Origin: Halobacteriales archaeon QS_3_64_16
GTDB taxonomy: Archaea; Halobacteriota; Halobacteria; Halobacteriales; Halococcaceae
Direction: 5' to 3'
DNA: 64,000 bases
Assembly: GCA_003021705.1 (NCBI GenBank)
Contig: PXRJ01000016.1
Span: 1,382 to 65,381 of the forward strand
Within the stretch, counting starts at the first letter, position 1; each line of letters begins with the position of its first letter. A program made the position numbers and the translations under genes. Of the stretch, positions 40,592-64,000 are shown piece by piece. A model generated the notes under the pieces. That model saw only the letters and a list, made by a program, of their open reading frames with translations. It did not search any database and was not told where the DNA came from.

Positions 40592-40837
40592 ATGACGATC
40601 CTCGTTACCGGGGCCGACGGGTACGTCGGCTGGCCAACGGCACTGCGGATCGCCGACCGCACCGACGAGCGCGTCCTCGGCGTCGATAACCTCGCCCGTC
40701 GCCGATGGGTCGAGACAGTTGGGTCGGTAAGCGCAGTACCGATCGCTCCTATTGAGGAGCGGTCCGCTGCGGCGGCCAGCGACGAACACCGTTTCTCTCT
40801 ACTCCAGGGCATCGTTGTGCCCGCCGTTCTCGATTGA
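40592..40837 (+). pseudogene. 5' fragment of an NAD-dependent sugar epimerase (UDP-sulfoquinovose-synthase-like), copy 1
   Basis: The frame starts ILVTGADGYVGWPTALRIAD, the NAD-binding N terminus of an extended short-chain dehydrogenase of the SQD1 type, and runs to about residue 60 (VGSVSAVPIAPIEERSAAAA) before the homology ends. A full enzyme would have about 390 residues. A TATAAA at 40574-40579 precedes it. A second, further deleted copy lies at 63918. Truncation is clear; transcription is possible but no complete product can be made from the visible DNA. Confidence 0.75.
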
Positions 40838-41242
40838 CGACCGGTTAACGAACTCCTCGGTCTCATCAGCGTGCTCCTCACTATTGGTACCCGCCTCCTC
40901 AGCGGCCCGAACGATTTCGATCGCTATTCGAACCATGCAGAACCAACAGCAGTCACCCATCCGACGGTAGTAGCACCCGCCTTTTTCTTTCGGGAAGTGG
41001 ATCACGACACTGTATTTTTCTACTGCTTGATTAAAGTTTTGTCTGTTGTAAATGATAAGCCGACTGTGGGAGCCCATACTCAAGTACTAGTTGCTTTAAT
41101 GGATGCTCTAACGTATCAGATCCCTGCTTCAACGCTCGTTCACGTGTAGCTCGCGGAATACTTAGCAGAACTACTATCTATTTAATAAGTAGCATGAAAG
41201 TAATATTGGAATACTATCATCGCTACTCGCTTGGGGATTCAA
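40838..41242. other. AT-richer stretch between fragments, no supported gene
   Basis: About 400 bases of lower GC than the neighbourhood, with short frames only. A 45-codon acidic frame on the minus strand (40799-40936) is possible but overlaps the epimerase fragment and has no recognisable relatives. Probably debris between recombination joints. Confidence 0.5.
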
Positions 41243-42046
41243 ATGCCATCGACTTGGTTCACCAAACTTGACATCCTCGGTTTGATCGGGATTACTCTCG
41301 GGCTGCTCGCGGTCGCGTACGCGCCTACTGTGTACAATCATGTTGGAGCGACCTCAGCATAGTGCCGCGTTGTTACGATCTCGATGATCGCTTCGTCGGA
41401 TTGTTGCTGTCGGTAATGTATCTCACTTCGACGCTCAATAATACTCGAAACAAGATCGATGGGCTTGCTCCGATGCTCTCGGCGGATCAGGCCACGAACA
41501 CCCGTTCAATAGAGGGAAGTAGTGTCTACGTCCTTATTCCAGGGTACAATGAGGAGAACGCGATCAACAGCGTTATTGAGTCGCTGTCGGCGTCGATCTA
41601 CGGCCATGAGGTCGTCCCCGGTCACGATGGATGGAGACTGCCGACACTCCACCGACGCGCTCGATGAGTGGATCCGTCCGATTATTGAGGATGAGGCGGA
41701 TTTCGTCATAGGATCGTGACGTCGGGGTATAGATTACTTGAAGAGTGGTCCCGCCTGCCAGGGCGGCATTCACTCCTTTACCCTCCTGATTGCTGCGCTA
41801 ACGAGCCTCTTGATCACCGACTGTACGAGCGGCTTCCACGCGATCCGCGGGTCATCGCTCGAAACGCTGTGGCCCCACCGAAGAACGATTCAGTGCCCGG
41901 GGCTCGTTGTTGAGGCCGAAACAAGCAACTCCGGGTCACGGAGGTTCCGATCACGATCGAGCGGCGACAGGCCGGCGAGACGAAGAAACCACAACTCAAG
42001 TACGCTATTGGCCTCCTACGAACGATCATCGTGACCCGGATCCGAT
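41243..42046 (+). pseudogene. Decayed GT2 glycosyltransferase (paralogue of 61146-62171)
   Basis: Translation in shifting frames matches the intact GT2 gene on the other side of the island: FTKLDILGLIGITLGLL corresponds to FIKLDLLASIGVACALF, YVLIPGYNEENAINSVIESL to YIVIPAYNEEDTIQSVVKSL, WIRPIIEDEADFVIGS to LIRPIVEDEADFVMGS, and ITDCTSGFHAIRGSSLETL to ITDCTNGFRAIRSSSLETL. Several stops, frameshifts and internal deletions (including the metal-binding DGDGQ region) show it is dead. It is on the plus strand, opposite to the intact copy. Confidence 0.85.
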
Positions 42047-42124
42047 GGTCCATCTAAGGGGAACGATCAACCGGCGTCGGCGAGACGAGAACCCGAACGC
42101 GACGATCCGGCACGCCTATCGATC

Positions 42125-42569
42125 GTGAACGTCCTTCGGGTCTCGAAAATGTCGCTCTTCTCGAAGGGTGGTGGTGGCAGGGAGCGTGCCGACGTGATTT
42201 TCGAACGCCTCGCCGAACAGGGTCACGCCGTGACCGCACCCTCGGGAAAAACGGCTCCAAATCTCCTGCGACGCACCTCGGTGGGCAGTTGATCGTCCAC
42301 GTGAGGTGCGTCTCTGACCACATTTTCGCCTAGTTGACGTTCGCCTTCCATGCGACGCGTTACCTATTCGTCCTGGCTAGACTGCTGACATTACTCTTCT
42401 TTCCGTATTGCCGGGAGATTGTCGTCGTCGAGAATATGACCCCTTATCCGACCTTCGCCATTGTCGTTGCGAAAGCGTCTGACCTGCCGGTCGTCGCGTT
42501 ATAACACGAGTTCTTCGATACAAGCAGCTATCGAACATGCGACCCGCTCATCGGGAGCGTTCAAGTCCA
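42125..42569 (+). pseudogene. Decayed GT4 N-terminal fragment (paralogue of 59774-60982)
   Basis: A GTG-started frame reads NVLRVSKMSLFSKGGGGRER, matching NVLYISKTSILSGGGGGEER of the intact GT4, then ENMTPYPTFAIVVAKA and HEFFDTSSY, matching ENMTPYPTFAVFLARF and HEFFDASSY. Stops and frameshifts are frequent. It ends near the equivalent of DPLTASIQ and runs directly into a decayed glmS tail. It follows the dead GT2 in the same order as the intact pair. Confidence 0.85.
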
Positions 42570-42653
42570 GTTGTTCGCCTGCCACAGCGCCGCCGACTCG
42601 GCCGGTCGATCGACAAGCCTCGGAACCTCGTGAGAAGCGTCACCGTCGAGTAA
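42553..42653 (+). pseudogene. Decayed copy of the glmS 3' end
   Basis: About 100 bases closely resemble the last part of glmS (40311-40415): CCACAGCGCCGCC, GATCGAC and AGCGTCACCGTCGA match exactly, with scattered changes and a one-base loss that shifts frame. It is fused to the dead GT4 at a place where the intact GT4 and glmS share a 17-base stretch with one mismatch. Confidence 0.85.
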
Positions 42654-42982
42654 TCGGCTCTCGACTGCGGACCTTTTCCCATTAGTTTCTCTCCGGTCCC
42701 AATGGATGCCGACCGGTCGATCGGTCCCGCTGTAATCCGCCACCCTAATAAGGACTACCGGCGGAGACTCATGGGAACGATTTAAGAACCGATAGCAGAG
42801 CGGCCTTGGCCCTCTCTGGCGGCCGACGACCGGTTGATACCCTATGCCCCCTTCGTTCGGTCGAGACCCGGGGTTCGTCGCCTGGGCATGCGCGGGCCGA
42901 CTCCCACTGGCGAACCACACGGAGTAGTGGGGGTTGCCAAGAAGTAATCGACCGATTCGGGAGCCGAGGACAAACGACTCAA
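42654..42982. other. Leader region before the flippase
   Basis: No supported gene. A TATA-like CGATTTAAG at 42778-42786 would give a leader of about 170 nt before the flippase ATG, unusually long for a haloarchaeon. Alternatively the flippase starts upstream of 42983 within an unconserved, tryptophan- and arginine-rich stretch. Confidence 0.4.
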
Positions 42983-44398
42983 ATGAACATCGCTAAGTCC
43001 AGTGCCAAGTTGTTTGCTTCGCGGGCCGCGCGGGCGTTGTTCCTGTTCATTGGAACGACCTACTTCGCGAGGCAACTCGGCGCATCGGAGATTGGCGTGT
43101 TCTTTCTGTTCCAGGCGCTAGTGCGGTTACTGTCGGTCATCGCCGATTTTGGCCTCCGGGGAGCGATCGAGAAGCGAATGAGCGAAGGACGGCACGCCCC
43201 GACAATATTAAGCGCGGGCGTATCGCTTAAACTCGCCCCCCTATCGATCGTCGCCGCAGCGGTCTGGCTCCTCCGAGGGTTTGTCAACGAGTACCTCGGC
43301 GCTGATCTCGCGCCCCTACTACTCGTGGCCGTCGTGCTCTACGAGAGTTCACGTCTAAGCATCGATGTGCTGAGAGGTCGGATGCGTGCTGGCGAGACGG
43401 CCTCGCTCGAAGTACTCGAACAGGCGACGTGGCTTCTGACCGGAGCGGCGCTCCTCGAACTGGGTTTCGGCGTTCGGGCGCTCGTATACGCGCTTTTGGT
43501 CGGGTACGCGATGATGACTCTAGGAGGATTGTACAAACAACCGCCGCGCGTGGCCCGACCGTCGATGTCGATGATGCGGTCAATCGCGGACTACGCGAAG
43601 TACCACTCGGTGAACATAGCGGGCGGGTACGTCTACAGTTGGATGGACCTCGCGATAATCGGGTTGTTCCTTACTCAAGCCGATGTTGGTGCCTACGAGG
43701 TCGCCTGGCGGATCAGCCTGTTCGCGACGATCCTCAGTACGTCCATCGGCGTCGCGATCTTCCCGCAGATGAGTGCCTGGGACACAAGCGGCGCAATCGA
43801 TCGGATCGAGAGTCTCATTCCGACCGCGATGGTCTTCTCGGCGCTGTTTGTCATCCCAGCATTCGTCGCCATGCCGGTGCTCTCCGCGGACATTCTCCGC
43901 GTCCTATTCGGACAAGAGTACACGATCGCCTCGGCGGCCCTCATCGTCCTCATGAGTCAAAAGGTCATCAGCGCAATCGGGACCACAATTACGAAAGCAC
44001 TCAACGCGATCGACAGGCCGAACCTGCGAGCCCGTGCTACGGTGGGATCGCTACTGACGAACGTCGTCCTCAACGTCGTGTTGGTGTTGCAGTTCGGTCT
44101 CCTCGGTGCTGCGGTCGCGACTACTATTGCCGCCGCGATAAACACCGGTATACAGGTCTATTACCTCTCGCGATTCGTAACGATCGACTTTCCCTACTAC
44201 GACGTCGGGTGGCTCGCCTTCTCGTCGCTATGTATGGCGGCCATCATATTCGGGATCAAATCTATCTATACTGTCAATGCGATCGTCGGGTTGGCCGGTA
44301 TCGTTCTTGTCGGCGGTGCGACCTACACCGCGTTCGTCTTCGTCTCGCCCCGTCTTCGCTTCCGTCTCCGTCTGACGATCGATCGACTGCTGGCCTAA
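42983..44398 (+). CDS. Polysaccharide flippase (MOP superfamily, Wzx-like)
   Basis: A 471-residue membrane protein with about 12-14 hydrophobic segments, starting NIAKSSAKLFASRAARALF and containing GTTYFARQLGASEIGVFFLF, the usual N-terminal pattern of oligosaccharide flippases. It would move lipid-linked glycans across the membrane for N-glycosylation or exopolysaccharide. ATG at 42983 is where the conserved pattern begins. Its TAA overlaps the stop of the convergent DUF1616 gene. Confidence 0.85.
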   Translation: MNIAKSSAKLFASRAARALFLFIGTTYFARQLGASEIGVFFLFQALVRLLSVIADFGLRGAIEKRMSEGRHAPTILSAGVSLKLAPLSIVAAAVWLLRGFVNEYLGADLAPLLLVAVVLYESSRLSIDVLRGRMRAGETASLEVLEQATWLLTGAALLELGFGVRALVYALLVGYAMMTLGGLYKQPPRVARPSMSMMRSIADYAKYHSVNIAGGYVYSWMDLAIIGLFLTQADVGAYEVAWRISLFATILSTSIGVAIFPQMSAWDTSGAIDRIESLIPTAMVFSALFVIPAFVAMPVLSADILRVLFGQEYTIASAALIVLMSQKVISAIGTTITKALNAIDRPNLRARATVGSLLTNVVLNVVLVLQFGLLGAAVATTIAAAINTGIQVYYLSRFVTIDFPYYDVGWLAFSSLCMAAIIFGIKSIYTVNAIVGLAGIVLVGGATYTAFVFVSPRLRFRLRLTIDRLLA

Positions 44399-45591: not shown

Positions 45592-45593
45592 TG

Positions 45594-47792: not shown

Positions 47793-47920
47793 GGTCTGAA
47801 CATTTATCCGAAGGGCGGCGGCATACGTTTGTCGAACGTTGCCGCGAACTTCTCGTGGCGGCCGAGCGCGGCCGACCTCGGGCTGACGACAGTGAAGGTG
47901 AGGAAGGCGTTGTGGGCGAC

Positions 47921-49021
47921 TCAGCGGTAGCCGAGGTCCGCAAGCCGTTCGTGGACTGCCGTCTCGTCGATACGCTTCTTGACTAGTTCGTAGCCGTCCT
48001 TCTCCTGAGGAGGCTCGACATCGATGCCGAAGTACTCGAGAATCGCGGGTGTCACGTCGAGCTGTCGTTCTAGTCCGAACGGCGCGGTCCCACCCCACAC
48101 TCCTCGCGTCGTATCGTGATCTAAGCCAATGTTCTTCCCGACGCGGAGCGGGGAACGCGGTCCCATTCCGTGATCGGAAAGAACGAGGACGTCGTCCGGG
48201 TTGATCTCATCGATGACGCGTCGTGTGGCTCTGTCGGTCGCTCGATAGATCCGCTCGATTACTCCCTTGTCTGTTGTTGAGTGCAGGACGTCGTCGATCG
48301 AGCGAAGCATGACGAACCCGAACTCGAAGTCCTCTCGTTCGTCGTGGTCGCTGTAGAGGTCGATATACCGATCCGCGACCGCCTCGGTTTTGTCGACGTG
48401 AGCGTCGCAGAACGCTTCGACTGAGGTATTCTCGTCGTTGACCGGGGAGTCCATTTGGACGTGATACCCGGTAAAGTCCTCGTCGAAGACCGTTGGTTGG
48501 AGTTCGGCTGGGGAGACGAGCGGTTGTGTGGCTTCCTCGGGCGTCGGAGCGGGGACGCCGCTGATAAGGATGCCGTTCGTTTCCCACGTCGGGTAGCTCA
48601 CCGGCAGGCCGAAGACTAGCGCGTTCCCCGACAGGTACTCCCAAACGCGCTTGAACGGCACGTCGGTGCTTTGGGGACTTGCGCCACGTCCGCCCTCGGT
48701 TGCGACGTTCCCGAGACCGAATGCGAGTACGCCACGGCGGACCAGCCGCGGCAGTACCGATCGGTTCGCTACCCACTTGATCGGCCCCGCGAGCGGGTGG
48801 CCGACGTACGGTCCGTGAACGAACCCGAGGACCCGGTGGTCTTCGAAGGGCGCGCCGGTCGTGATCGTCGTCCAGGCATTGCCGGTGCTGATGTACGTGT
48901 CGTGGAACAGCTCCTCGGGAAGTAACGTCCCGGAGTGATCGAGCGAGTCCCAGAACGGGAGGTCGATCGCCCGGAGGTGTGTCGAGGTCGCTGCATCCCA
49001 CCCGACTACCAGTAAGTCCAT
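47921..49021 (-). CDS. Alkaline-phosphatase-superfamily hydrolase (phosphodiesterase type)
   Basis: A 366-residue enzyme: metal-binding Asp in LLVVGWDAATSTHL, a Thr nucleophile region AWTTITTGAPFEDHRV, and the late metal motif LVLSDHGMGPRSP. The residues suit a type I phosphodiesterase/pyrophosphatase rather than a formylglycine sulfatase, as there is no CxPSR. It ends LADLGYR, a tail shared with three other AlkP-fold proteins in the island. First gene of the operon with the GT-C-like and DUF1616 genes. Confidence 0.78.
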   Translation of the reverse strand: MDLLVVGWDAATSTHLRAIDLPFWDSLDHSGTLLPEELFHDTYISTGNAWTTITTGAPFEDHRVLGFVHGPYVGHPLAGPIKWVANRSVLPRLVRRGVLAFGLGNVATEGGRGASPQSTDVPFKRVWEYLSGNALVFGLPVSYPTWETNGILISGVPAPTPEEATQPLVSPAELQPTVFDEDFTGYHVQMDSPVNDENTSVEAFCDAHVDKTEAVADRYIDLYSDHDEREDFEFGFVMLRSIDDVLHSTTDKGVIERIYRATDRATRRVIDEINPDDVLVLSDHGMGPRSPLRVGKNIGLDHDTTRGVWGGTAPFGLERQLDVTPAILEYFGIDVEPPQEKDGYELVKKRIDETAVHERLADLGYR

Positions 49022-49178
49022 TGACCGCCGATTGCGCACCGTTCCTCATAGGCCCTTCCATGTGACCGGCCGTTCTCCTCGTCGGGGGGTTTACGTACGT
49101 CCGTTCGGTCCCAGAGTGAGGCCGATCGAGCGCCGAGGGGAGTTAACAGCTATACGACCGGCCGACGTGACGTGATCT

Positions 49179-50480: not shown

Positions 50481-50622
50481 CAATTGGACCCTCGACCCCA
50501 GTCCCGTCCTATCGCCGCCGAAACTCGCTGCCTTGAGTCGAGATTTGGTCGCCGTCGAACCCGCCGACACTGCTGACGCGCCGCCGGGGCCGACAGTTGT
50601 TTCCCTCGTTTTCGCACATCGA

Positions 50623-50641
50623 ATTTAAGTACAGGGAGGAG
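50623..50641 (+). promoter_or_regulatory. TATA box and ribosome-binding site of the Tat-exported protein
   Basis: ATTTAAGT at 50623-50630 is followed by GGGAGGAG at about 50634-50641, 13 nt before the ATG at 50655. The close packing means the Shine-Dalgarno may lie at or before the transcription start. Confidence 0.4.
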
Positions 50642-50654
50642 ACCACGGCGTCTC

Positions 50655-52127: not shown

Positions 52128-52320
52128 CTGGCGAGCAGCGCGAGCGATCCGGCGGGCGGTATCGAGGCGAGCAACGTACTGATACGAGGATAGCGACAAC
52201 CCACTGAGCGCTGCGACGCTTTGAGCCCTCCGGACGGCCGCCTTCAAAGGGGGGCCCAGCAATGGCTCCGGCCGGGACCGTGCTTCGATTTGCCCAACCC
52301 CCAAGACACCGGCAAGCGAT

Positions 52321-53523
52321 TCAGGACACGCCCGGCAGGACATCGAGAGCGCGGCGGATGAACGGGCCGGGGTCGTCGACGAAGAGGTAATCGAACTGTG
52401 GCTGTCGGTACACTGATGATAGGACCTCCCACAGCGCGGTTCGGAACCGGGGGCGTTCGACAGTTGGGTCCTCACCCCGAAGCACGCTGAGGAGGTACTG
52501 GACTTCGCCGAACAGCGAGTGGACCGCAAAACCAGTCTCGTAGCCGGGGTCGGTAGGTATGATCCCGCCCGCGACGAGCCAGTAGTAATATGGAAAGTCC
52601 GCGCCTGCGCCGATGTCACAGCTAATCGAGCCCCAGGCCCGCGGGTTCACGTCCATCAGCTTGAACTCGTCCGTTGCTGGGTCCTGTAGGAACTCGACGT
52701 CTACGAGACCCTCCCAGTCGAGGTAATTGAGCAGCGCACAACCTGTTTTTTCTAGCTTCGGCATCGAGATCGACTCGCGATAGACGCTCACGCCGCCGGT
52801 ATAGGAGTTCTGTCGCCATTCCCTGTTTAGACATACCGCCACCGGCTCGCCTTCCTCGTAGAGCGCTCGGAAACAGTATATATCGCCCGGGATGACCTCT
52901 TGAGCGATCGGAGTATGACCCATTGCTGTCCGGATCGCTTCTACGTCCGGTCCGCTATCCGCCGCCGAAACCCGCCAGGTATCCAGTTCTGTCTCGGCTG
53001 ATACGGATGGCCCGACGTATTCCTCGACGAGGAGGTTGTATCGCGATTTGACGATCAGCTCACGATCTAACTCGGCCGTTCCGTCGAGCAGCCATGTCTT
53101 AGGGGTCGATACTCCGGCCTCCATGGCGGTTTCGACCAAACGCATCTGATCGTGGATCGTCCTGAGCGCCTCGAACGGCGGTACCACCACTGAGACGTGT
53201 GATTCAAACTCCGAGCGGTACTTCGAGAGGAGGTAGGTGTCTTCCTCCCAAACCGGAAGGATCGTCCGTATATCCGGGCGTTCCGCGAGCGATAGCAATG
53301 CCTCCTTATAGGCGAGTACATTCTTTTGGGGCGAGGGAACGACGACGGCTTCGTCGCAGTACTGCGAGGCGAACGCCGGGACGTTCCGGTAGGGCGAGAC
53401 GACGACCGTATAGACCTCGCGCGAGGCAAGCGAGCGCAGACACGCATAGCAGGACGGCGAGTAGTTCGCCGGCAGAACGACTGCCTCCCCCTCGTTAGCC
53501 GATTCGATCACGGCCACTAGCAC
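52321..53523 (-). CDS. ATP-grasp enzyme (carboxylate-amine ligase-like)
   Basis: A 400-residue protein with a preATP-grasp N-terminal domain (VVLPANYSPSCYACLRSLASR), a central ATP-grasp region (IVKSRYNLLVEEYV, QEVIPGDIYCFRALYEEG) and the metal-binding VDVEFLQDPATDEFKLMDVNPRAWG. Such ligases join amino acids to carboxylates and may add an amino acid to a glycan. Several GTGs occur at the start. The first 29 nt overlap the end of the upstream propeller gene, so the two are translationally linked. Confidence 0.78.
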   Translation of the reverse strand: MLVAVIESANEGEAVVLPANYSPSCYACLRSLASREVYTVVVSPYRNVPAFASQYCDEAVVVPSPQKNVLAYKEALLSLAERPDIRTILPVWEEDTYLLSKYRSEFESHVSVVVPPFEALRTIHDQMRLVETAMEAGVSTPKTWLLDGTAELDRELIVKSRYNLLVEEYVGPSVSAETELDTWRVSAADSGPDVEAIRTAMGHTPIAQEVIPGDIYCFRALYEEGEPVAVCLNREWRQNSYTGGVSVYRESISMPKLEKTGCALLNYLDWEGLVDVEFLQDPATDEFKLMDVNPRAWGSISCDIGAGADFPYYYWLVAGGIIPTDPGYETGFAVHSLFGEVQYLLSVLRGEDPTVERPRFRTALWEVLSSVYRQPQFDYLFVDDPGPFIRRALDVLPGVS

Positions 53524-54700
53524 TGTCTAAGGAGTCATCAACTTTTGGGTCCGGCGAGACGTACATCCCGATGCTCCAGTATGGTTTCGCGACCGGGTTC
53601 GGTCTGGGTCCGACGTCGCCATCGACCGCACAGAGCCAGCCATCGCCGGTATACCAGGGATCGATGTGGTGCATCCGCCCGGCGTTCCAACCGATCGCCC
53701 GGTTTACCGGTCGCAAAAGGGGCGATCGGGCCAGCTCGCGGTCGACATATGTCGAGGGGGTTAGTTCCGTGATCTCGTAGCCTCTAACCTTCTCGCCGTA
53801 GTTGATGACACAGTCCTGAAAGAAAGCAATGATTCGGTTATCCCTGACGATCGGTCGGCCGCCCGGTCGTGCCGCGGCGGGTCGGTCGGTTACGATTGGG
53901 TTCTCCCGGTGTGGAGACCAGCCTTCCGTCGTAAGATCGTCACTGAAGTACGCGTACGTTCGATCGCCGGCCGTCGACCCGCCGACGAGCGCCCACCACC
54001 TCTCCTTCCACCGGAAGAGAACGGTGTCGTTCACCGGGTGGTTCGCAGAGATCAGGACTGCTCGCTCGCTCCAGTCCGTCGGGAACTCCCTCGCCGCGTA
54101 GAGAACGACGCTCTCGCCGGACGCTCCACCCTGCTCAGGGAGCATATAGTGTGTGCCGTCCCACTCGAAGACATAGGGAAACGATAGGTGCGAGTCCGCT
54201 TCCAGTACTACGCGGTCATACCGCCAGTGACGGCCGCCGTCGGGGCTCGTAGCATGGCCAATCACTGCGTCGGGCCGTCGGTCGCCGTTGTAGACCTCGA
54301 AGAAGAGGTGATAGCCCTCGTCCTCGGAGACGAACAGGAACGGGTCGGCGACGTACTCGACGCGCCCATAATCGGTTACGTCTGCGGCACTCAACACCGG
54401 ATTTGGGATTCGCAGGTCGGGACAGGCTGAGAGGGGTTCGCTCAGCGTCGGGGAGTAGGGATAGGTCGGGATCGTTGTTCCGCTGGGGAGGTCGCTGTAG
54501 AGCGACGCGAGCGGGGGTCTTGCGTCTGACCACCTCGTCTCTGGCTCCGTGAGACCGCGCTCCCGTAGCGCTGCCGGGAGTTCGTGATGGATTGATCGAT
54601 TGGCTGCCCGCGCCAGTAAAACGATGGACGGCAGGTTGCCCGCCGCCGATCGTATCCAGTCGAATCGGAGATATCGCCTCGGGAACAGGCGGTCGGTCAT
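53495..54700 (-). CDS. Five-bladed beta-propeller protein (GINT1 N-terminal-domain type)
   Basis: A 401-residue protein with repeated strands of the glycosidase-43/62-like propeller: YVADPFLFVSEDEGYHLFFEV, SFPYVFEWDGTHYMLPE, DTVLFRWKERWWALVG and RPGGRPIVRDNRIIAFFQDC. The family is linked to the N-terminal domain of glucosamine inositolphosphorylceramide transferase and occurs beside formyl- or glycosyltransferases. Here the partner appears to be the ATP-grasp gene, overlapping by 29 nt. Likely a glycan-modifying or binding protein. Confidence 0.7.
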   Translation of the reverse strand: MTDRLFPRRYLRFDWIRSAAGNLPSIVLLARAANRSIHHELPAALRERGLTEPETRWSDARPPLASLYSDLPSGTTIPTYPYSPTLSEPLSACPDLRIPNPVLSAADVTDYGRVEYVADPFLFVSEDEGYHLFFEVYNGDRRPDAVIGHATSPDGGRHWRYDRVVLEADSHLSFPYVFEWDGTHYMLPEQGGASGESVVLYAAREFPTDWSERAVLISANHPVNDTVLFRWKERWWALVGGSTAGDRTYAYFSDDLTTEGWSPHRENPIVTDRPAAARPGGRPIVRDNRIIAFFQDCVINYGEKVRGYEITELTPSTYVDRELARSPLLRPVNRAIGWNAGRMHHIDPWYTGDGWLCAVDGDVGPRPNPVAKPYWSIGMYVSPDPKVDDSLDSASGRDRIG

Positions 54701-54844
54701 CCGTTGCTGAACAGTAGGGATTGACTCGTAACTAGCTTCCGAACCGGTGCTCCGAGCTGTCGTTTCACAGCGGCCATTCGGTAGGCAGCCACGACATGCT
54801 CGTCATTTCGCGGATCACGGCTCGGCCCTAGCGGATATACAGCT

Positions 54845-55403
54845 CATGTTGAGTCCATCTTCGTGAGCGACAGCGACCAGTTCGATCGATTGAGTAGACC
54901 GACATCCCCCACTGACCAGGGGAACTCGTCGGTCCCAGTCGGCCGAACGATCAGGACTCGCTATGTGGAGACGGCCGACAGCGGAAAGGATCCATCGGAG
55001 CAAGACCTACGTCGCCGGAGCACCGATTGCGGAACTGTCGTCCCTCGGATCGCGATGTGGTTCGATCCAGCGTATTCAGCGACGATCCGAGCGAGCAACG
55101 CCGACAGCGCCGCCGACCGTCGCTAGCCGCCGATGAGCGGGACAACATCAGTAAGATGCATCGTCGTTTCCTGGTCCGATGCCCACGTCCTGACAATGAT
55201 CCCGGCGACCGTCGTGTCATCCCTATGGCTGTATACGCTCCGTAACTCCATTGTGGGTCACTGAATTGCCAGTGATAGAACGCTCCTCGCTCCTCGCGGC
55301 AGGCGTGGATCGTGGGCAGTATCGATCGCCGATAGAGCGAGAGAAAGTCGGCTCGACTGTTTAGTTCGAGAAAGCGAATCGTGTACTTCCCCTCGCTCCT
55401 CAT
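54845..55403 (-). pseudogene. Decayed GNAT acetyltransferase copy 1
   Basis: In shifted frames this strand resembles the intact GNAT gene at 55874: it opens with YTIRFLELNSRADFLSLY, like YTIREFKPGDREGFRALF, then jumps to FYHWQFSDPQWSYGAYTAIG, like FYRWRFGNPEWDYTAYTAIQ, and ends with DRSNW-like LNRSNWSLSL. A large internal deletion and frameshifts make it non-functional. It is opposite in orientation to the intact gene. Confidence 0.75.
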
Positions 55404-55464
55404 AGCGGGTTGTTTAACGCTCAGTTCCTGGGATCGGGCGTCGTGAGGCTATTGCTACCGTCCG

Positions 55465-55713
55465 AGAGAGCAACTGATCACCGCGTTCGGCACCGCTGTC
55501 TCGCCCGCCTCACTACTGGCCGCCCACGGGTTCGTGAGCAATCACTGTGCGCCGTTGTCGTGGGTCACCACCGCGACGCCGATGGTAGTCAATCCACTCA
55601 CAGACGAGCGGTCCGGAGAGACAAGCGAAGCCGACGAGTGGGACATTAATGGGTTCGATCCAACCCAAGAGACGAATTAGCTGTTCTTCTATAGCAATCG
55701 AGACATGGTCTAA
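55465..55713 (+). pseudogene. Decayed GNAT acetyltransferase C-terminal fragment, copy 2
   Basis: The frame LITAFGTAVSPASLLAAHGF matches LIAAFGTAVSPALLDSYGF of the intact GNAT, with the nucleotide stretch CGCGTTCGGCACCGC identical. It continues with SWVTTATPMVVN, INGFDPTQETN, a stop, and FFYSNRDMV, paralleling FWVAAANSMVVH, LDGFDPSDRSN and LLSYSDWDVI. Only the last quarter of the gene remains. Confidence 0.8.
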
Positions 55714-55831
55714 GTTCTCAGTCCGCGCTCGAAGCCGGAAACCTCGAAGGCGACGACTCGCGATCGTCAGATCCTGTCCGACCCCAACGGGCGCTGCGCT
55801 CCATGGAGCCGCTTCACAGTTTTCACAAGGA

Positions 55832-55838
55832 TTTATGA
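55832..55838 (+). promoter_or_regulatory. TATA box of the GNAT gene
   Basis: TTTATGA lies 36-42 nt before the ATG at 55874, leaving a short leader that contains GAGGGGA as a ribosome-binding site. Confidence 0.45.
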
Positions 55839-55873
55839 CGACATAGAAGAGACGATGCGGTTACTGAGGGGAA

Positions 55874-56974
55874 ATGACGAGTGATACATATACGATTAGA
55901 GAATTCAAACCAGGCGATCGTGAGGGCTTCCGGGCGCTGTTCGAGATGGTCTTCGAACGTCCGCTCTCCAGGGAGACCTTCGAGTGGAAGTTCGAGCGCA
56001 ATCCCTATATCTCACACGTTCCGATACTGATCGCCGAGGCTAACGGGACGATCGTGGGTGCGCGAGCCTTTCTCGCCCGCCGACTTCGGGTCGGCGAGGG
56101 AACTGTCCTGGCGCTCGAAGGAACGGACGTAATGGTCCGACCCGATCACCGCCGGCAGGGGATATACACCCGGCTCTCCGAGTCCGCGCTCAAGCGGTAC
56201 GCTGATAGCGAGGCAGCCCTTTGGTTTGGCTTCGCCAATCAGATCTCCTTTCGCGGCAACCTGGACCACAGCGTACGTTTAACCGACGCGGTCCCGACGT
56301 ACTACCGGTTGCAGGACCCGACGGCGCTGCTCAGTTCGACTGACAGCATATGGACGCGTCTCGTCAGCCGGATCGGCGCGCCGCTCGTCAGGAGTTACCT
56401 CGGCGTTCGCGATCGGACTCGATCGGAGTCGTCTGATGCTGTAAGCGTCCACCGTCACGCCGAGATCCCAGCCGAAGCCCTTGGGGCACTGTACGAGCGA
56501 ACCACCCCCGACATGTTGCACACCGTTCGGGACGCGTCGTTCTACCGCTGGCGCTTCGGTAATCCCGAATGGGACTACACTGCTTATACTGCTATCCAGG
56601 GCGGGCGGGTCGTCGGCGGGACAGTAGTCGGCACGCAGTCCGTAGGTGGGACGACAACCACCAGGATCGCGGACGTGTTGCCGATGGGCCGGAGCGCCCG
56701 AACACCGGCTATAAAAGGAGTGCTCGAAGCCGCGATCGCCGACCACGAGGATTCGGATCTGATCGCCGCGTTCGGCACCGCCGTCTCGCCCGCCTTATTG
56801 GATTCGTACGGCTTTCTTTCGAACTGCCGGCCGCCGCTGTTCTGGGTTGCTGCCGCCAACTCGATGGTCGTCCACTCGCTCGTCTCGGGTCAGCCCGAAT
56901 GGAATCTCGACGGGTTCGACCCGAGCGACCGGTCGAACTGGCTGCTGTCCTACAGCGACTGGGACGTGATCTGA
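55874..56974 (+). CDS. GNAT-family N-acetyltransferase
   Basis: A 366-residue protein. The N-terminal GNAT domain runs from YTIREFKPGDREGFRALF to the acetyl-CoA loop RPDHRRQGIYTRLSE; the second half (FYRWRFGNPEWDYTAYTA onward) looks like another GNAT-like domain, the arrangement of Eis- or FemAB-like modifying enzymes. Within this locus it may acylate an amino sugar. It is the only intact member of three copies within 2.1 kb, and lies in a segment with evident duplication. Confidence 0.78.
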   Translation: MTSDTYTIREFKPGDREGFRALFEMVFERPLSRETFEWKFERNPYISHVPILIAEANGTIVGARAFLARRLRVGEGTVLALEGTDVMVRPDHRRQGIYTRLSESALKRYADSEAALWFGFANQISFRGNLDHSVRLTDAVPTYYRLQDPTALLSSTDSIWTRLVSRIGAPLVRSYLGVRDRTRSESSDAVSVHRHAEIPAEALGALYERTTPDMLHTVRDASFYRWRFGNPEWDYTAYTAIQGGRVVGGTVVGTQSVGGTTTTRIADVLPMGRSARTPAIKGVLEAAIADHEDSDLIAAFGTAVSPALLDSYGFLSNCRPPLFWVAAANSMVVHSLVSGQPEWNLDGFDPSDRSNWLLSYSDWDVI

Positions 56975-57044
56975 TCCCAGCCGGTCGGTTCATTCCTGTT
57001 CTTCCCGAGAGGAGCGCGAATGAAGGCCCAAATCCTTTCTTCCC

Positions 57045-58220: not shown

Positions 58221-58347
58221 GGAAAGAACTCCTTCCGGGCAAATTCGGGCCATGGCTCAGCGGTGCTGTCCGGTCCGGGCTGGAGGGCTCGCCGATGCCG
58301 GTCCCGCCGACCTTTCTGTCTCCGTCGCGACCATTCCGAGAGAGCCC

Positions 58348-59784
58348 TCATTTGTAGCCGAGTGCCTCCAGCCGGTCTTCGATCTCCTCGGTCGTCTCGG
58401 TCTCGACGTCGGGTCCGATGCTGGGATCGCCCTCGCGTAGCCTGGTGGCGCTGTGCTCTCGAAGCCGTGATCGCAGTTCCTCGAACCGTCCTTCGGTCGG
58501 TGTCGACTCCAGGCCGACCTCAATCGGCTCGCGCTCCAATCGATCGACCGTGAGGTCGAAGCTCTGCTCGTTGGTTACCTTCCCAGTATCTATGTGCCGA
58601 TCTAGAACGTGTTTCGAGCGCTCGTCTCGGGCGGCGAACCGGACTACGTCCCTGTCGTTGCCGTTCTCGTCTTCGAGCCGCGCGCTGCTGTAGACCACGC
58701 CTGGGTGGCTCTCGGACGCCGAACCTGAGCCTGGCTCGCTTTCGGCCAGCAGGTTGAGCAGGGAGGTTCCCGGGAGCGCGCTCGCGTCCCCGCCAACGAA
58801 GTCGAGGATCGTCGGCACAATATCGAGCGTACTGACCGGCGTGTCGATCCGGGCTGCCCCGGCGGTTCCAGGAAGAGAGATGAGCAGCGGCACAGCCAAC
58901 AACTCCTCGTGAAGCTGCCGGGGATGGGTGTAGTAGCCGTGCTCGCCGAACCCGTCGCCGTGATCGGCCGTGAGGATCACCAACGACTCCTTGAGTAATC
59001 CGCGCTCGGTTAGTTCCTCGAAGAAGGCCTCGATCTGTGCGTCGAGATACCTGATCTCGCCGTCGTAGAGGTCAACCAACAGCCGACGCTCGCTCTCAGT
59101 GATCGCCTCCGGGCGCTTGATGCATTTCTGGTAGAGCGCCTGGGCGTCACCATCGGAGGGTTCCTGATCGGCATAGGAGTAGTCCCCAGGGGGGTTGTAC
59201 GGCCCATGAACGTCCATGTAGTGATTCCAGAGAAAGATGGGCTCGGGGTCGGTTGGGTCCGATGCGCTAGGCGTGGCAGGCCTGTCGAGGGAATCAAGCC
59301 ATTCTAGCGATCGCCGGTTGAGCTCTGCGGCTCGGACGTGATATCGGCCTCGCTTGAATACGAACTTACTGAGAGCCCGCTGTGCCAGCGCAACGAGCCT
59401 GTTCCTACCGAGAACGAGGTCGTCGAAGAAGGCATCGAACCCGTCGTCGTAGCCATACGCCCGCGAGAGATAGGGGTTCGAGTGAAAACCCGCGGTCCGG
59501 TACTCGCGAGCCGAAAGCATCGTCGCTACGCTCTCGGCCACCAGCCGATACCCGTTCTGCCCAAATATGTCCGGGTATTGCCCGGTGAGCAGCGCTGGCA
59601 TTGCCTCGCGAGTGTGTGAACTCGCTGAGATGGCCGTCCTGAAGTTCGCTGTCCGATCCGTGAGTGAATCGAGGAAGGGACTGGTCGTCCGGTCGTAGCC
59701 GTGATAGGAAAGGTGATCGGCCCGGAGTGCATCGATACTAAGCAACACGACGTTTCGCGGTTCGGCGGTCGTTCTATCGGTCAT
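58348..59784 (-). CDS. Sulfatase-like AlkP-superfamily enzyme
   Basis: A 478-residue protein: NVVLLSIDALRADHLSYHGY (metal Asp18), SPFLDSL, SSHTREAMPALLTGQYP with Ser/Thr in place of the formylglycine Cys, LWNHYMDVHGPY, and LTADHGDGFGEHGYY. It ends RLEALGYK. It is not N-terminally hydrophobic, so probably cytosolic. The ATG at 59784 overlaps the end of the GT4 gene (stop at 59774) by 11 nt, so it belongs to the GT2-GT4-sulfatase-GT4 series. Confidence 0.82.
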   Translation of the reverse strand: MTDRTTAEPRNVVLLSIDALRADHLSYHGYDRTTSPFLDSLTDRTANFRTAISASSHTREAMPALLTGQYPDIFGQNGYRLVAESVATMLSAREYRTAGFHSNPYLSRAYGYDDGFDAFFDDLVLGRNRLVALAQRALSKFVFKRGRYHVRAAELNRRSLEWLDSLDRPATPSASDPTDPEPIFLWNHYMDVHGPYNPPGDYSYADQEPSDGDAQALYQKCIKRPEAITESERRLLVDLYDGEIRYLDAQIEAFFEELTERGLLKESLVILTADHGDGFGEHGYYTHPRQLHEELLAVPLLISLPGTAGAARIDTPVSTLDIVPTILDFVGGDASALPGTSLLNLLAESEPGSGSASESHPGVVYSSARLEDENGNDRDVVRFAARDERSKHVLDRHIDTGKVTNEQSFDLTVDRLEREPIEVGLESTPTEGRFEELRSRLREHSATRLREGDPSIGPDVETETTEEIEDRLEALGYK

Positions 59785-60982
59785 GGATTTGATTCCCCGT
59801 TCTGCTGCTCGTCCGTCCGCGCTCGCCATTGCTTCTGACGCGTTTCAATACCGTCTCCGTTCGTTCCGCGGCCGATTCCCACGTATACTGCTTCGCGGTC
59901 TCGCGAGCCCGCTGCCCCATCGCCTCGATCGAGGCAGGGTCCTCGAGCAGTCCTTCGATCTCCGCTGCGAACGCTTCCGGCTCGCGGTCTTCGATCAGAT
60001 GTCCGTTCTCGCCGTCGTGAACGAACTCTCTATAGACGGGAAGCTGTGCGGCCACGACTGGGAGACCAACCGACATCGCTTCGAGCAATACGATGCCAAA
60101 GCCCTCCTGTTCGGAGGCGAAGACGAATAACTGTGCCCGGTTGAGCAGCGTTGCCTTGTGCTCTTCGCTCACGAACCCGTGGAACCGTACAGCCGTTGTG
60201 AGATCGAGGTCTTCGACCACCCCTTCGAGCCTCGTCCGCATCGGTCCCTCGCCGGCGATATCGAGTCGGACGCTATGTCCCGCGTCCCGAACGATTCGAA
60301 GTGCGCGGAGGAGTCGCTCGTGGTTCTTGCGTTTGGTGAGCCGGCCGATCACGAGCAGCCGTCCGTGCTCGGGCTCGATTGCCGGCCTTCGGTACGCGTC
60401 AGTTCGGATGCCGTTAGGAACGACCTCGATTCGGTCTTCGGCGACGCCGTAGCGAACGAACTGGCCCTTCGTGTGGGCGCTTGGGACAATTAGTGCTTCG
60501 TACTCGAAGAGCCGGAGGAAGTTCTGGACGAGAAGCTGGATGCTCGCGGTCAGCGGGTCGTAGAGGTCGTAGCTGCTTGCATCGAAGAACTCGTGTTGAA
60601 CGGCGACGATCGGGATGCCGAAGAACCTCGCGAGGAACACGGCGAAGGTCGGGTACGGCGTCATGTTCTCGATGAGGATCTCTACGTCTCGGCGGTACAA
60701 CAGCGAGGCGAGAACCGGCAGGCTAAGGAAGGCAAAGAGGTATCGCGTCGCATAGAAGGCCAGCGTCGGCCACCGAAAGAGACCGTCGGGAACGCACTTG
60801 ATGTGGACGATCGATCGATCGTCCGCCGTGGTGTGTCGCGGGAGGTTGGGGGTCGTTTTCCCCGAGAGCACGGTTACGGCATGGCCCCGCTCGGCGAGGC
60901 TCTTGGTGATCGCGTCGGCCCGCTCCTCGCCGCCACCACCGCCGGAGAGGATTGACGTCTTCGAGATATAGAGCACATTCAT
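59774..60982 (-). CDS. GT4-family glycosyltransferase
   Basis: A 402-residue GT-B enzyme starting NVLYISKTSILSGGGGGEER, with VVPNGIRTDAY, LLVIGRLTKRKNHERLLRAL and EGFGIVLLEAMSVGLPVVAA. The two middle hydrophobic stretches (FYATRYLFAFLSLPVLASLL) suggest membrane association. A decayed N-terminal copy is at 42125. It shares a 17-base stretch, one mismatch, with the glmS 3' end at 60534-60550. Second gene after the GT2. Confidence 0.88.
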   Translation of the reverse strand: MNVLYISKTSILSGGGGGEERADAITKSLAERGHAVTVLSGKTTPNLPRHTTADDRSIVHIKCVPDGLFRWPTLAFYATRYLFAFLSLPVLASLLYRRDVEILIENMTPYPTFAVFLARFFGIPIVAVQHEFFDASSYDLYDPLTASIQLLVQNFLRLFEYEALIVPSAHTKGQFVRYGVAEDRIEVVPNGIRTDAYRRPAIEPEHGRLLVIGRLTKRKNHERLLRALRIVRDAGHSVRLDIAGEGPMRTRLEGVVEDLDLTTAVRFHGFVSEEHKATLLNRAQLFVFASEQEGFGIVLLEAMSVGLPVVAAQLPVYREFVHDGENGHLIEDREPEAFAAEIEGLLEDPASIEAMGQRARETAKQYTWESAAERTETVLKRVRSNGERGRTSSRTGNQIHDR

Positions 60983-61145
60983 GATCGATAGGTACGCCTC
61001 GCAGTCGCCGTCAGTGTGACTGCTGCCGAGATCGTGCTTTCGATTTCGGTTTCTGTCTTGATTCCGGCTTTGTTCTCGTCTTTCTCCATTCTTGGGCTTT
61101 TGTCTTCCCGATCCCGACGAGCGACTTTGAGCGGGTGAGGGCAGT

Positions 61146-62171
61146 TCACCGAATCCAGGTCACGATGATCGTTCGTAGCAGTCCAACGGCATATTTGAGC
61201 TGTGGTTTCTTCGTCTCGCCGGCCTGCCGTTCTTCGATCGTGATCGGGATCTCCCTAATGCGGAGCCCCTTCTTGCGGGCTTCGATGATGAGTTCGGGGG
61301 CACTGAATCGCTCCTCGGCGAGGCGCAGCGTTTCGAGCGACGAGCTACGGATCGCACGGAAGCCATTCGTACAGTCGGTAATTGAGAGTTGTGTGAGCGC
61401 GTTGATCAACCGGGTGAACGCGTGGATACCGCTCCGGCGGACGATACCGTTTTCCGAGTGGTCGGTCCCTCGGTGGCGCGACCCCATAACGAAGTCCGCC
61501 TCGTCCTCAACGATCGGGCGGATCAGCTCCTCGAGGGCTGCCGTGGGGTGTTGGCCGTCGCCGTCCATGGTAACGACGACCGCCGCGCCATCCCGTCTCG
61601 CAATCTCGAAGCCGGTTTTCAGCGCGCCGCCCTGACCCTGGTTCAGGGGATGTTCGGTGACGATTGCGCCGGCGTCCGCCGCTTGTTGTGCGGTCGCGTC
61701 GGCCGAGCCGTCGGAGACGACGACGGGAACGACTTCGAGCCCGTGGACCGACGCCGGCAGCGACTTGACGACCGATTGGATCGTGTCTTCCTCGTTGTAC
61801 GCTGGAATCACGATATAGACGCTTTCGCCGTCAATCTGGCGTGCGTTCGTCGTCTGATCGACCGAGAGTGTCCGGGTCAAGTCTTCGAGGTTACTCTGGG
61901 TGGTACGCAGCGCCGAGGTGAGGTAGAACACCGACAGTAACAACACGACCGAAGCGAGCATCGAGATCGTCGTGACGCGTCGCTGGATACTAAGGGTCGT
62001 CCCAACTCGATCGTAGATCGCGGGCATGTACGCGATCGCGAATAACGCACAGGCGACCCCGATCGACGCGAGCAGGTCGAGTTTGATGAACCGGCGGCGA
62101 TAGCGGCTGAAACCCCAGACGAGCGCCCCAAGCGCAAGCGATGTCAGCAGAGCTTCTAGTATTATGTTCAT
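61146..62171 (-). CDS. GT2 dolichol-phosphate-type glycosyltransferase with N-terminal membrane segment
   Basis: A 341-residue protein. Three hydrophobic helices (about 5-20, 33-53, 69-86) precede a GT2 domain: YIVIPAYNEEDTIQSV, VSDGSADAT, GQGGALKTGFE, TMDGDGQHP (metal-binding), VMGSRHRG and SITDCTNGFRAIR. This matches dolichyl-phosphate mannose/glucose synthase-like enzymes, with an unusual N-terminal rather than C-terminal membrane part. It probably makes a polyprenyl-phosphate sugar for the GT-C-like enzyme. A dead copy lies at 41243. Confidence 0.87.
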   Translation of the reverse strand: MNIILEALLTSLALGALVWGFSRYRRRFIKLDLLASIGVACALFAIAYMPAIYDRVGTTLSIQRRVTTISMLASVVLLLSVFYLTSALRTTQSNLEDLTRTLSVDQTTNARQIDGESVYIVIPAYNEEDTIQSVVKSLPASVHGLEVVPVVVSDGSADATAQQAADAGAIVTEHPLNQGQGGALKTGFEIARRDGAAVVVTMDGDGQHPTAALEELIRPIVEDEADFVMGSRHRGTDHSENGIVRRSGIHAFTRLINALTQLSITDCTNGFRAIRSSSLETLRLAEERFSAPELIIEARKKGLRIREIPITIEERQAGETKKPQLKYAVGLLRTIIVTWIR

Positions 62172-62723
62172 TTATGTTCTTTCAGTCCTGATACGACCGG
62201 TCCACCGTGGACCGAGGGCGGACCGATGATGATTGAGAGAACTAACACGATTGTGTAGCTATGATCGGAAGGAAATTCAGTAACGTGGCACATAGTTTCA
62301 GCATTTTTGAGTCTCACCGATAGAGGAGCTAAATGCAACTGGGGGAGTGTTCGGTCGGGTGGCTCACTTTCCGAAGCGAACCATTAGATGTTACTACCGC
62401 TGGCTGGATGATTGCTGCTAACTGTGTACGTTCGGATAGAAATCAGCGTCGTCCGGTCCGCTCGGGAAGGAAGCGACGATCGGAGCGACGCCGACGGCGC
62501 CGATGAACTCGCCGATCCCGCCGAGGACCGAACGTGAAGCCGTGCTAACTGATCGGTCGATCCGACACATCGGCTCGCGGTCCGTGAGGGTGCCGAGTCG
62601 ACGACCGATCTGATCGGTAATTTGCCGACTCGAAGGCGGTCGAAGGGCTCACCCTATGTCCACAAGCCGCTCCGGCGAGCGTGGACGGCACTGAGGCATA
62701 GCCCCTTGTTTCCGGGAAACGGT
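62172..62723. other. Intergenic stretch between GT2 and AlkP genes
   Basis: About 550 bases without a supported gene. Frames are short. The part at 62440-62700 is GC-rich and could be the remnant of a coding gene, but I could not match it to any gene in the window. No RNA gene seen. Confidence 0.45.
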
Positions 62724-63740
62724 TCATTGCTTGTACCCGAGCGCTTCGAGCTGCTCCGAGAGGTCCGCTTCGTGGTCGTTTCCTGGGGTCTCGAGGGTTA
62801 CTGTCGGGGTGTAATCGTGCGTGTCGTGTGCCGTCGTCTCGACCCATGGAACTGACCTGAGTTTCGGATGTAATAGTCCTACGGCGTGGCTATACAGCCC
62901 AAGTTCGCCGAAGAGTTCGCCATGGTCGGCAGTGATCGCCACCCGGGGTGCATCGACATTACGGAGGAGGACCGCTACCTGATCGAGGACGTATCGGAGG
63001 TTATCGAGATACGCCCCCCAGACGGTTTCGATCGTCGCCTCGCCACGCCGGAGAGAATCGAATGGGTCCGACTCCCACGGTTCGAGATAGCTCCGCTCGG
63101 ACGCCGCCGCCAGGAATGGCTGATGGGGTTGCATATAGTGGATGATCATTCGATCGACGTCGCGCTCGCGGCCTGCGACGATCGCTCGGTCAGTCATTTC
63201 CTCGGGCCGTGGCATGCTCGTCTCGATACCGTCCTCATGGGCGCCCGTATCGATCGAAAAGAAGACCGGATCGTAGGACGCGAAGCTATCGGCACTGACG
63301 GTGGTGTCTTTAATCAGCCGATTTAATTCACTGTGTTCGGCGAGGAACGTCTCGCTAACTGAACTGTACCCGAGGTAATCGATCGGCGGCTCGCGCATCT
63401 GATTAGCGAAGGGGTTCGCGGTCAGATATGCCGTTTGTTCGATCTCCTCGCGATAGCTCTCGGTGAATGTCCGGTCGATCCACTCTTTGGAGGTGCTGCC
63501 GATTGAGCGGATCTCACCGACGCCGTCGACAAAGGAGTACTCCTCCTCGACGGCCCGCAAGGCATCTGCCCGGCAGGCATCGAGAACGATCAATAGGTCC
63601 CAGTCCGCCTCGAAGACATTCATCCCGATAGGGTACCGCGACGTGAGAGTCGTGTATAATAATACGTACAGTGCGAACGCCTCGCGCGCTGCCGAACCGC
63701 TATACAACCGCCGGCACAGTTTCTCCGCAGTCGAGGGCAT
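62724..63740 (-). CDS. AlkP-superfamily enzyme with N-terminal hydrophobic segment
   Basis: A 338-residue protein with metal Asp54 in LLIVLDACRADALRAV, the nucleophile region IRSIGSTSKEWIDRTF, IHYMQPHQPF and ITADHGELFGELGLY. It ends LEALGYKQ. The ATG at 63740 is preferred over the frame's first codon because upstream residues look non-coding. An N-terminal amphipathic/hydrophobic stretch (FALYVLLYTTL) may attach it to the membrane. Fourth AlkP-fold member of the island. Confidence 0.78.
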   Translation of the reverse strand: MPSTAEKLCRRLYSGSAAREAFALYVLLYTTLTSRYPIGMNVFEADWDLLIVLDACRADALRAVEEEYSFVDGVGEIRSIGSTSKEWIDRTFTESYREEIEQTAYLTANPFANQMREPPIDYLGYSSVSETFLAEHSELNRLIKDTTVSADSFASYDPVFFSIDTGAHEDGIETSMPRPEEMTDRAIVAGRERDVDRMIIHYMQPHQPFLAAASERSYLEPWESDPFDSLRRGEATIETVWGAYLDNLRYVLDQVAVLLRNVDAPRVAITADHGELFGELGLYSHAVGLLHPKLRSVPWVETTAHDTHDYTPTVTLETPGNDHEADLSEQLEALGYKQ

Positions 63741-63917
63741 TGACCCGCTTGCGAGGCCGACCCGTATAAGCAATATGCACTGTCGCGGAGCCGAAAGCCA
63801 CGGCGAAGCAAGTGATGAATCGACCATAACAGAATAATTAGAAGAAACACATTTGTTCGTTAATATCGTCAAACGACAGTTACTTGACCGGGCCTCGCTT
63901 TCTACGGCTAGCACTGC

Positions 63918-64000
63918 ATGGCAATTCTCGTTACCGGGGCCGACGGGTACGTCGGCTGGCCAACGGCACTGCGGATCTCGCTCCTATTGAGGAGCGGTCC
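63918..64000 (+). pseudogene. 5' fragment of the same sugar epimerase, copy 2 (91-bp deletion, runs off window)
   Basis: The frame starts AILVTGADGYVGWPTALRIS; bases 63927-63976 are identical to 40601-40650 apart from sequence before them. The next bases jump to the equivalent of 40743, so 91 bases (40652-40742) are missing and the frame shifts. Same orientation as copy 1, 23.3 kb away. What follows beyond 64000 is not visible. Confidence 0.75.

What the first reader, a model, noticed from the sequence alone, without database searches (positions are those of the whole stretch)
40592..64000. Glycan island bracketed by direct repeats of a truncated sugar-epimerase gene
The same 5' fragment of a UDP-sulfoquinovose-synthase-like gene occurs at 40592 and 63918 in the same orientation; 50 consecutive bases (40601-40650 versus 63927-63976) are identical. 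The second copy lacks 91 bp. Everything between is surface-glycan genes, suggesting insertion or exchange of the 23-kb block at this gene, with the fragments as scars or substrates for further exchange.
Basis: partly seen in the sequence, partly recalled or inferred. Interest (0 to 1): 0.6.

Follow-up and report, generated by a model that had tools for sequence, protein, structure and literature searches.

The report
Imported sugar-gene island splitting sulfosugar gene
A salt-loving archaeon carries a 23,000-base block of cell-surface sugar genes dropped into the start of a sulfosugar-making gene that is whole in its relatives, and the scars suggest that surface-sugar cassettes are swapped at this chromosome site.

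Summary
The two sqdB-like (UDP-sulfoquinovose-synthase-like) 5' pieces share exact direct repeats of 51 bp (40601-40651/63927-63977) and 35 bp (40743-40777/63978-64012). The rest of the gene follows past 64000. Nine of 18 family genomes, including the nearest congener, have glmS-sqdB uninterrupted, so this is an insertion. Joining the flanks at the 35-bp repeat (removing 23,235 bp) gives a gap-free 387-codon gene 92% identical to the congener's. As assembled, the gene is broken: the right copy lacks 91 bp and stops at codon 41.

The block carries flank relics: a diverged glmS 3' tail inside its left end, and a diverged sqdB leader and start at its right end. I infer a donor with the same glmS-island-sqdB layout and import by recombination at shared flanks. 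In 80 named haloarchaeal loci, the 10 kb upstream of sqdB holds glmS in 19 and island-type glycan genes in 16, without overlap. Two congeners in another family have different glycan sets between glmS and sqdB.

No integrase or transposase model and no tRNA was found. Excision is untested. Misassembly, above all of the 91-bp gap, is the main rival. Variable haloarchaeal glycan islands are already known.

The parts
37249..38616 (+). glmU-type nucleotidylyltransferase/acetyltransferase; conserved left flank
   Evidence: TIGR03992 above cut-off; syntenic in relatives
38619..40415 (+). glmS, intact; conserved left flank
   Evidence: TIGR01135 730 bits; 94% aa identity to G003
40592..40777 (+). sqdB 5' piece, nt 1-186 of the gene, with the native leader; reads on into a stop (81-aa ORF)
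40601..40651 (+).
40743..40777 (+). 35-bp exact direct repeat, left copy; joining at this repeat restores sqdB
40778..41225 (.). left end of the inserted DNA; no homologue found beyond 32-42 bp scraps
   Evidence: (392 genomes)
41226..42047 (+). decayed GT2 gene (pseudogene), frameshifted
   Evidence: sister to the intact GT2 at 61146-62171
42115..42558 (+). decayed N-terminal part of a GT4 gene, running into the glmS tail copy
42545..42652 (+). diverged glmS 3' tail (83% to own glmS, 86% to G003): read as a relic of the donor's left flank
42806..44398 (+). polysaccharide flippase-type membrane protein
   Evidence: PF13440, PF01943
44395..45591 (-). DUF1616 membrane protein
   Evidence: PF07760
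45594..48098 (-). 834-aa ORF without a Pfam or NCBIfam hit
47921..49039 (-). type I phosphodiesterase-like protein
   Evidence: PF01663
49179..50480 (+). sulfatase-fold protein
   Evidence: PF00884
50655..52127 (+). 490-aa protein without a Pfam or NCBIfam hit
52321..53523 (-). ATP-grasp protein
   Evidence: PF02655, just above cut-off
53495..54700 (-). GINT1_N-like protein
   Evidence: PF24793
55874..56974 (+). GNAT acetyltransferase
   Evidence: PF13527
57045..58253 (-). GT4 glycosyltransferase
   Evidence: PF00534, PF13439
58348..59829 (-). sulfatase
   Evidence: PF00884
59774..60982 (-). GT4 glycosyltransferase
   Evidence: PF00534
61146..62171 (-). DUF2304-GT2 glycosyltransferase
   Evidence: PF10066, PF00535
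62724..63914 (-). protein without a Pfam hit; weak similarity to STM4013-family hydrolases, below cut-off
63874..63917 (+). diverged sqdB leader, read as the donor's; keeps CGACAGTTA 44 bp before the ATG (native copy: 48 bp)
63918..64000 (+). right sqdB copy, continuing to 64990: nt 4, 6 and 9 differ, then identical to the left copy up to nt 186 except for the missing 91 bp; frameshift, stop at codon 41
63927..63977 (+). 51-bp exact direct repeat, right copy
63978..64000 (+). 35-bp exact direct repeat, right copy (runs on to 64012, past the window end)

Best explanation
A haloarchaeal surface-glycan cassette was imported into the glmS-sqdB junction. The ancestor had glmU-glmS-sqdB. A donor with the same layout, but with a glycan island between glmS and sqdB, supplied a piece running from its glmS tail (plus decayed DNA before it) to its sqdB leader and start. 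At the right end the incoming DNA recombined with the resident sqdB by homology. At the left end it was joined, without homology that I can see, after nt 186 of a resident copy. The shared part of sqdB was thereby duplicated on both sides, and 91 bp were lost from the right copy. Shown: the empty site in relatives, the exact repeats, the restored reading frame on joining, and the diverged flank relics. Inferred: the donor's layout, one-sided homologous plus illegitimate joining, and the effect on the cell surface (new glycan, loss of the SqdB product). It works like replacement of a capsule locus between conserved flanking genes.
For: Nine of 18 family genomes have glmS and sqdB adjacent. Joining at the 35-bp repeat gives 387 codons, 92% identical and ungapped to G003; the joined 1,357-bp stretch is 88% identical to G003. 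The block carries a glmS tail no closer to its own glmS (83%) than to other species' (86% G003, 84% G001 and G015). The right copy has a diverged leader. The island's GT2 has no blastn match in the 3 congeners, but has one in 8 of the 14 other family members, outside their glmS-sqdB contig positions. One named genome has sulfatase-GT4-GT2 in the same order and strand upstream of sqdB (L103). Two congeners of another family hold different glycan sets between glmS and sqdB.
Against: One draft genome (79% complete, 70 contigs) and no reads. No donor was found: matches over 400 bp outside this contig are only 63-72% identical. The left end (40778-41225) has no counterpart, so its joining mode is a guess. 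The inverted, decayed GT2-GT4 pair needs an extra event. The other glmS-sqdB intervals checked show no repeats of their flanks (L167, L168 and four shorter ones).
Confidence: 0.72

Rival explanations
1. Assembly artefact. Short reads could not cross the repeat, so the assembler either joined island and glmS-sqdB wrongly, or (milder) clipped 91 bp from a right copy that is really full length, in which case sqdB is intact on the right.
For: If this genome comes from the study that produced its three named congeners (inferred), reads were 100 bp and the assembler IDBA_UD (PMC5532433, passages). A full duplicate of nt 10-186 would exceed the read length. sqdB beyond the gap has no stop in 326 codons, and dN 0.052 / dS 0.395 against G003.
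Against: The 35- and 51-bp repeats alone are shorter than a read. The diverged leader and glmS tail are features that a wrong join would not be expected to create. The low dN/dS mostly reflects time before the insertion.
Confidence: 0.17
2. Integrative mobile element: a site-specific recombinase inserted the block at a 35-bp core in sqdB, and the sqdB start carried at its right end was meant to repair the gene.
For: Exact 35-bp repeats at both ends; precise restoration on joining; a start codon and leader carried next to the right repeat.
Against: No recombinase model among the Pfam hits and no tRNA. The carried start is out of frame. The 51-bp repeat directly beside the 35-bp one points to ordinary homology.
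Confidence: 0.06
3. The island is old at this site and the relatives lost it.
For: Glycan genes lie next to sqdB in several other genera.
Against: It needs repeated precise losses in nine family members; the direct repeats are still identical; the congeners lack the island's GT2.
Confidence: 0.04

Closest known systems
Variable surface-glycan / S-layer genomic islands of haloarchaea (Haloquadratum walsbyi, Halorubrum lacusprofundi, Haloferax)
   Same: Strain- or species-variable blocks of glycosylation genes in a conserved background (PMC3119063, PMC6011602, PMC5867893, passages)
   Different: Here the site is the glmS-sqdB junction, the insertion interrupts sqdB, and pieces of both flanking genes are carried inside the block
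Haloquadratum deletion-coupled insertions and repeat-bounded indels
   Same: Large foreign blocks, and indels bounded by short direct repeats, mostly under 20 bp (PMC3119063, passages)
   Different: No host DNA was lost at this site (gap-free join), and the repeats are 35 and 51 bp
Bacterial capsule or O-antigen loci exchanged between conserved flanking genes (recalled, no call)
   Same: Variable glycan cassette between conserved sugar-nucleotide genes
   Different: Archaeal; scars and a broken flank gene remain; no population data
Homology-facilitated illegitimate recombination (PMC3240628, abstract)
   Same: One end joined by homology, the other not
   Different: Described in bacteria with small linear DNA; only inferred here

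Membership tests
Haloarchaeal surface-glycan genomic island | Glycosyltransferase, flippase and sugar-modifying genes | tested here: met
Haloarchaeal surface-glycan genomic island | Absent from close relatives at the same place | tested here: met
   adjacent glmS-sqdB in 9 of 18 family genomes
Haloarchaeal surface-glycan genomic island | Variable within a population (low read recruitment) | not testable with these tools
   no reads available
Deletion-coupled insertion (Haloquadratum) | Insertion replaces host DNA at the site | tested here: not met
   flanks join without loss
Site-specific integrative element | Recombinase gene in the element | tested here: not met
   no such Pfam hit among the island ORFs scanned; ORFs without any hit remain
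Site-specific integrative element | Direct repeats at both ends | tested here: met
   35 bp
Capsule-type cassette between conserved flanks | Different gene sets between the same two flanking genes in different species | tested here: met
   G371 and G279, same genus, different sets apart from one shared 1.6-kb gene next to glmS
Capsule-type cassette between conserved flanks | Flank homology drives the exchange | tested here: inconclusive
   glmS tail and sqdB leader relics; no donor genome found
UDP-sulfoquinovose synthase (NF041015) | Score above the curated cut-off | tested here: not met
   intact G003 protein 338 bits, cut-off 575; best solved relative is SQD1, E 2e-71

The most novel reading that the evidence does not exclude
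The glmS-sqdB junction is an order-wide docking site for exchangeable surface-glycan cassettes. In this population the cassette is reversible: recombination at the 35-bp repeats excises a 23.2-kb circle and restores sqdB, switching cells between a surface with the SqdB sulfosugar and the cassette's glycan.
Probability: 0.08. Interest if true: 0.75.

Novelty: new variant of a known kind. Interest (0 to 1): 0.42.

Why it matters
Haloarchaeal cell surfaces differ between near-identical strains, and this is tied in print to virus attack and to mating (PMC5867893, passages; PMC5496957, search listing). How whole glycan sets move is little known; for Haloquadratum the authors call the mechanism of their deletion-coupled insertions undescribed (PMC3119063, passages). 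A conserved junction with a readable empty site, flank relics and several different cassettes in other genera makes glycan switching by flank recombination directly testable by PCR, reads and crosses in laboratory haloarchaea. The site also links amino-sugar supply (glmU, glmS) to a SQD1-like enzyme. Haloarcula hispanica has a 6-sulfo-quinovosamine in its S-layer N-glycan (PMC9943897, passages), so this trio may be a sulfo-aminosugar module (inference, not tested).

Tried and rejected
Rejected: chance similarity. Rejected: both fragments in unrelated places, as the rest of sqdB follows. Rejected: deletion-coupled insertion, as no host DNA is missing. Rejected: slippage between the two GATCGC words as a clean cause of the 91-bp loss; that would remove 93 bp and keep the frame, whereas the junction has two extra bases (read by eye).

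Led nowhere: the 448-bp left end has no homologue among 392 genomes, plasmids (only its sqdB, GT2 and glmS neighbours matched) or phages. No self-repeats of flanks in the other glmS-sqdB intervals checked. The genus of G006, G008 and G010 has a 4-kb insert between glmS and sqdB, but its genes showed no glycan family (only one of its ORFs was scanned). The donor was not found. A paper search for haloarchaea with glmS gave 12 papers; in the one I opened, glmS is named in a Halorubrum legionaminic-acid context. None of my seven paper searches listed a paper on a glmS-sqdB cassette site; I read only listings and passages.

Limits of the counts: in the order survey the sqdB search gave 159 of 392 genomes. 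I left 4 of the 80 (G028, G041, G052, G186, no glmS match at 1e-200) out of the tally of 76. Only two of the 7-70 kb intervals were read.
Full report
WHERE IT IS. The window lies at C16:1382-65381 of a 70-contig, 2.83-Mb haloarchaeal draft genome, 79% complete. The contig ends at 69,687, so I could read 4.3 kb past the window. Three congeners are held; their contigs match in length the records Halobacteriales archaeon QH_8_64_26, QH_6_64_20 and QS_8_65_32. These name patterns fit the Atacama salt-crust genomes of PMC5532433 (passages); that the window comes from the same study is my inference.

THE OBSERVATION. The 5' end of an sqdB-like gene stands at 40592 and again at 63918, same strand. 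Two exact repeats link them: 51 bp, and a 35-bp one that in the right copy follows at once but in the left copy comes 91 bp later. No other exact direct repeat of 21 bp or more exists in the 68.3 kb, and 20 Markov surrogates gave at most 18 bp. The left piece covers nt 1-186. The right copy has nt 1-60 and nt 152 to the end of the gene at 64990, followed by two epimerase genes. The gene is SQD1-like: the best solved relative is Arabidopsis SQD1 (E 2e-71; species recalled), and the best NCBIfam model is UDP-sulfoquinovose synthase, at 338 bits against a cut-off of 575, so the exact product is not settled.

IT IS AN INSERTION. In the nearest congener G003 the order glmU-glmS-sqdB-epimerase-epimerase is uninterrupted. 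Over the 18 family genomes (including this one), glmS was found in 18 and sqdB at E below 1e-150 in 17; the two are 0.1-0.5 kb apart in 9, about 4 kb apart in 3, on different contigs in 3 (G002, G004, G016), on one contig but 16.6 kb apart on opposite strands in G005, absent (sqdB) in G014, and 23 kb apart here. Joining the flanks at the 35-bp repeat, which removes 23,235 bp, gives an open 387-codon gene, 92% identical to G003 without a gap; the joined DNA is 88% identical over 1,357 bp. As assembled, the left copy reads into a stop after 81 codons and the right copy stops at codon 41, because 91 is not a multiple of three. The rest of the gene has dN 0.052 and dS 0.395 against G003, so any damage is recent relative to that split.

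THE BLOCK CARRIES PIECES OF BOTH FLANKS. Just inside the left end, at 42545-42652, is a second glmS 3' tail. It is 83% identical to this genome's own glmS, 86% to G003 and 84% to G001 and G015, so it is not a fresh copy of the resident gene. At the right end the sqdB leader is diverged, yet keeps CGACAGTTA 44 bp before the ATG, as the resident and congener leaders do at about 48 bp; nt 4, 6 and 9 of the gene differ and from nt 10 on it equals the resident gene. A donor with glmS-island-sqdB explains both (inference). The 13 island ORFs scanned with a Pfam hit include a flippase, three glycosyltransferases, sulfatase- and phosphodiesterase-fold proteins and modifiers. Between the left junction and the glmS tail lie 448 bp without homologue, then a frameshifted GT2 and the first third of a GT4, in the opposite orientation to the intact GT2-GT4 pair at 59774-62171. 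In a small tree the decayed GT2 is sister to the intact one (support 0.999; 18 sequences), so the island already held an inverted, decaying duplicate. Island G+C is 61% against 65% to its left. Blastn of the island found its GT2 in none of 3 congeners and in 8 of the 14 other family members, with one further 81-bp match in G008.

THE SITE IN OTHER HALOARCHAEA. Among 80 named loci with sqdB (best 80 of 117), 19 have glmS upstream on the same strand within the 10 kb fetched, at distances of 0.3-5.8 kb, and 16 have homologues of island-type genes upstream; the two sets do not overlap. Within Halosimplex, H. carlsbadense and H. aquaticum have glmS there, H. salinum and H. pelagicum have glycan genes. 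L103 has sulfatase, GT4 and GT2 in the same order and strand as here, upstream of sqdB. In 76 non-family genomes, glmS stood upstream on the same strand within 0.6 kb in 3, 0.6-7 kb in 8, 7-70 kb in 7 and further in 2; in 25 it pointed towards sqdB from the other strand within 70 kb; the remaining 31 had other arrangements, larger distances, other contigs or no listed glmS. I read two of the 7-70 kb intervals: G371 and G279, one genus of another family, each with about 16 kb. G371 has three GT4s, a GT8-like and methyltransferases; G279 has GT4s, an asparagine-synthase-like protein, and dTDP-rhamnose-type genes. The two intervals share one 1.6-kb stretch next to glmS and otherwise only scraps. 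Neither shows repeats of its flanks.

HOW IT PROBABLY WORKED. The right-end anatomy (diverged leader and first nine bases, then resident sequence) looks like a homologous crossover inside sqdB. The left end, where the resident gene stops at nt 186 and unrelated DNA begins, looks like illegitimate joining. One homologous and one illegitimate end is a described way to take up DNA in bacteria (PMC3240628, abstract), and it would duplicate the sqdB stretch between the two ends, as seen. Haloarchaea are polyploid (PMC10085750, search listing), which would let an intact copy persist during such an event (inference). The 91-bp loss in the right copy is either a later deletion or an assembly fault. 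A single crossover of a circle would give the same structure; I cannot tell these apart.

WHAT SPEAKS AGAINST. One draft genome, no reads, no donor, no second example with the same scars, and an unexplained left end. If the right copy is really complete, the island would sit between glmS and an intact sqdB and nothing would be broken; the import story would stand but the gene-disruption part would fall.

VERDICT. Confirmed observation, supported interpretation, with the key repeat moved to the 35-bp copy and the empty site shown. The kind of thing (variable surface-glycan islands of haloarchaea) is known; the junction, the flank relics and the restorable gene are the new parts.

Noticed in passing
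window 54846-55224 and 55474-55710: Decayed pieces of GNAT-like genes, on both strands, next to the intact GNAT gene at 55874-56974 (also repeat D16).
   Followed up: partly
window 41621-42047 and 61147-61574: The decayed and intact GT2-GT4 pairs form imperfect inverted repeats (71-80%) 19 kb apart inside the island, which could in principle support inversion of the island interior.
   Followed up: partly
window 42530-42660: The decayed GT4 runs into the glmS tail at a short stretch similar in both genes (overlap about 42545-42558), suggesting a microhomology join.
   Followed up: no
L045, L172, L173 (G006, G010, G008): A genus of the same family has a shared 4-kb insert of three ORFs between glmS and sqdB, its largest ORF without a Pfam hit.
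   Followed up: no
L005 2410-4393 (ext 65028-67011): Two consecutive, distantly related NAD-dependent epimerase genes follow sqdB in most of the 80 named loci.
   Followed up: no
L175 (G005): sqdB and glmS lie 16.6 kb apart on opposite strands, with long ORFs and no island homologues between.
   Followed up: no
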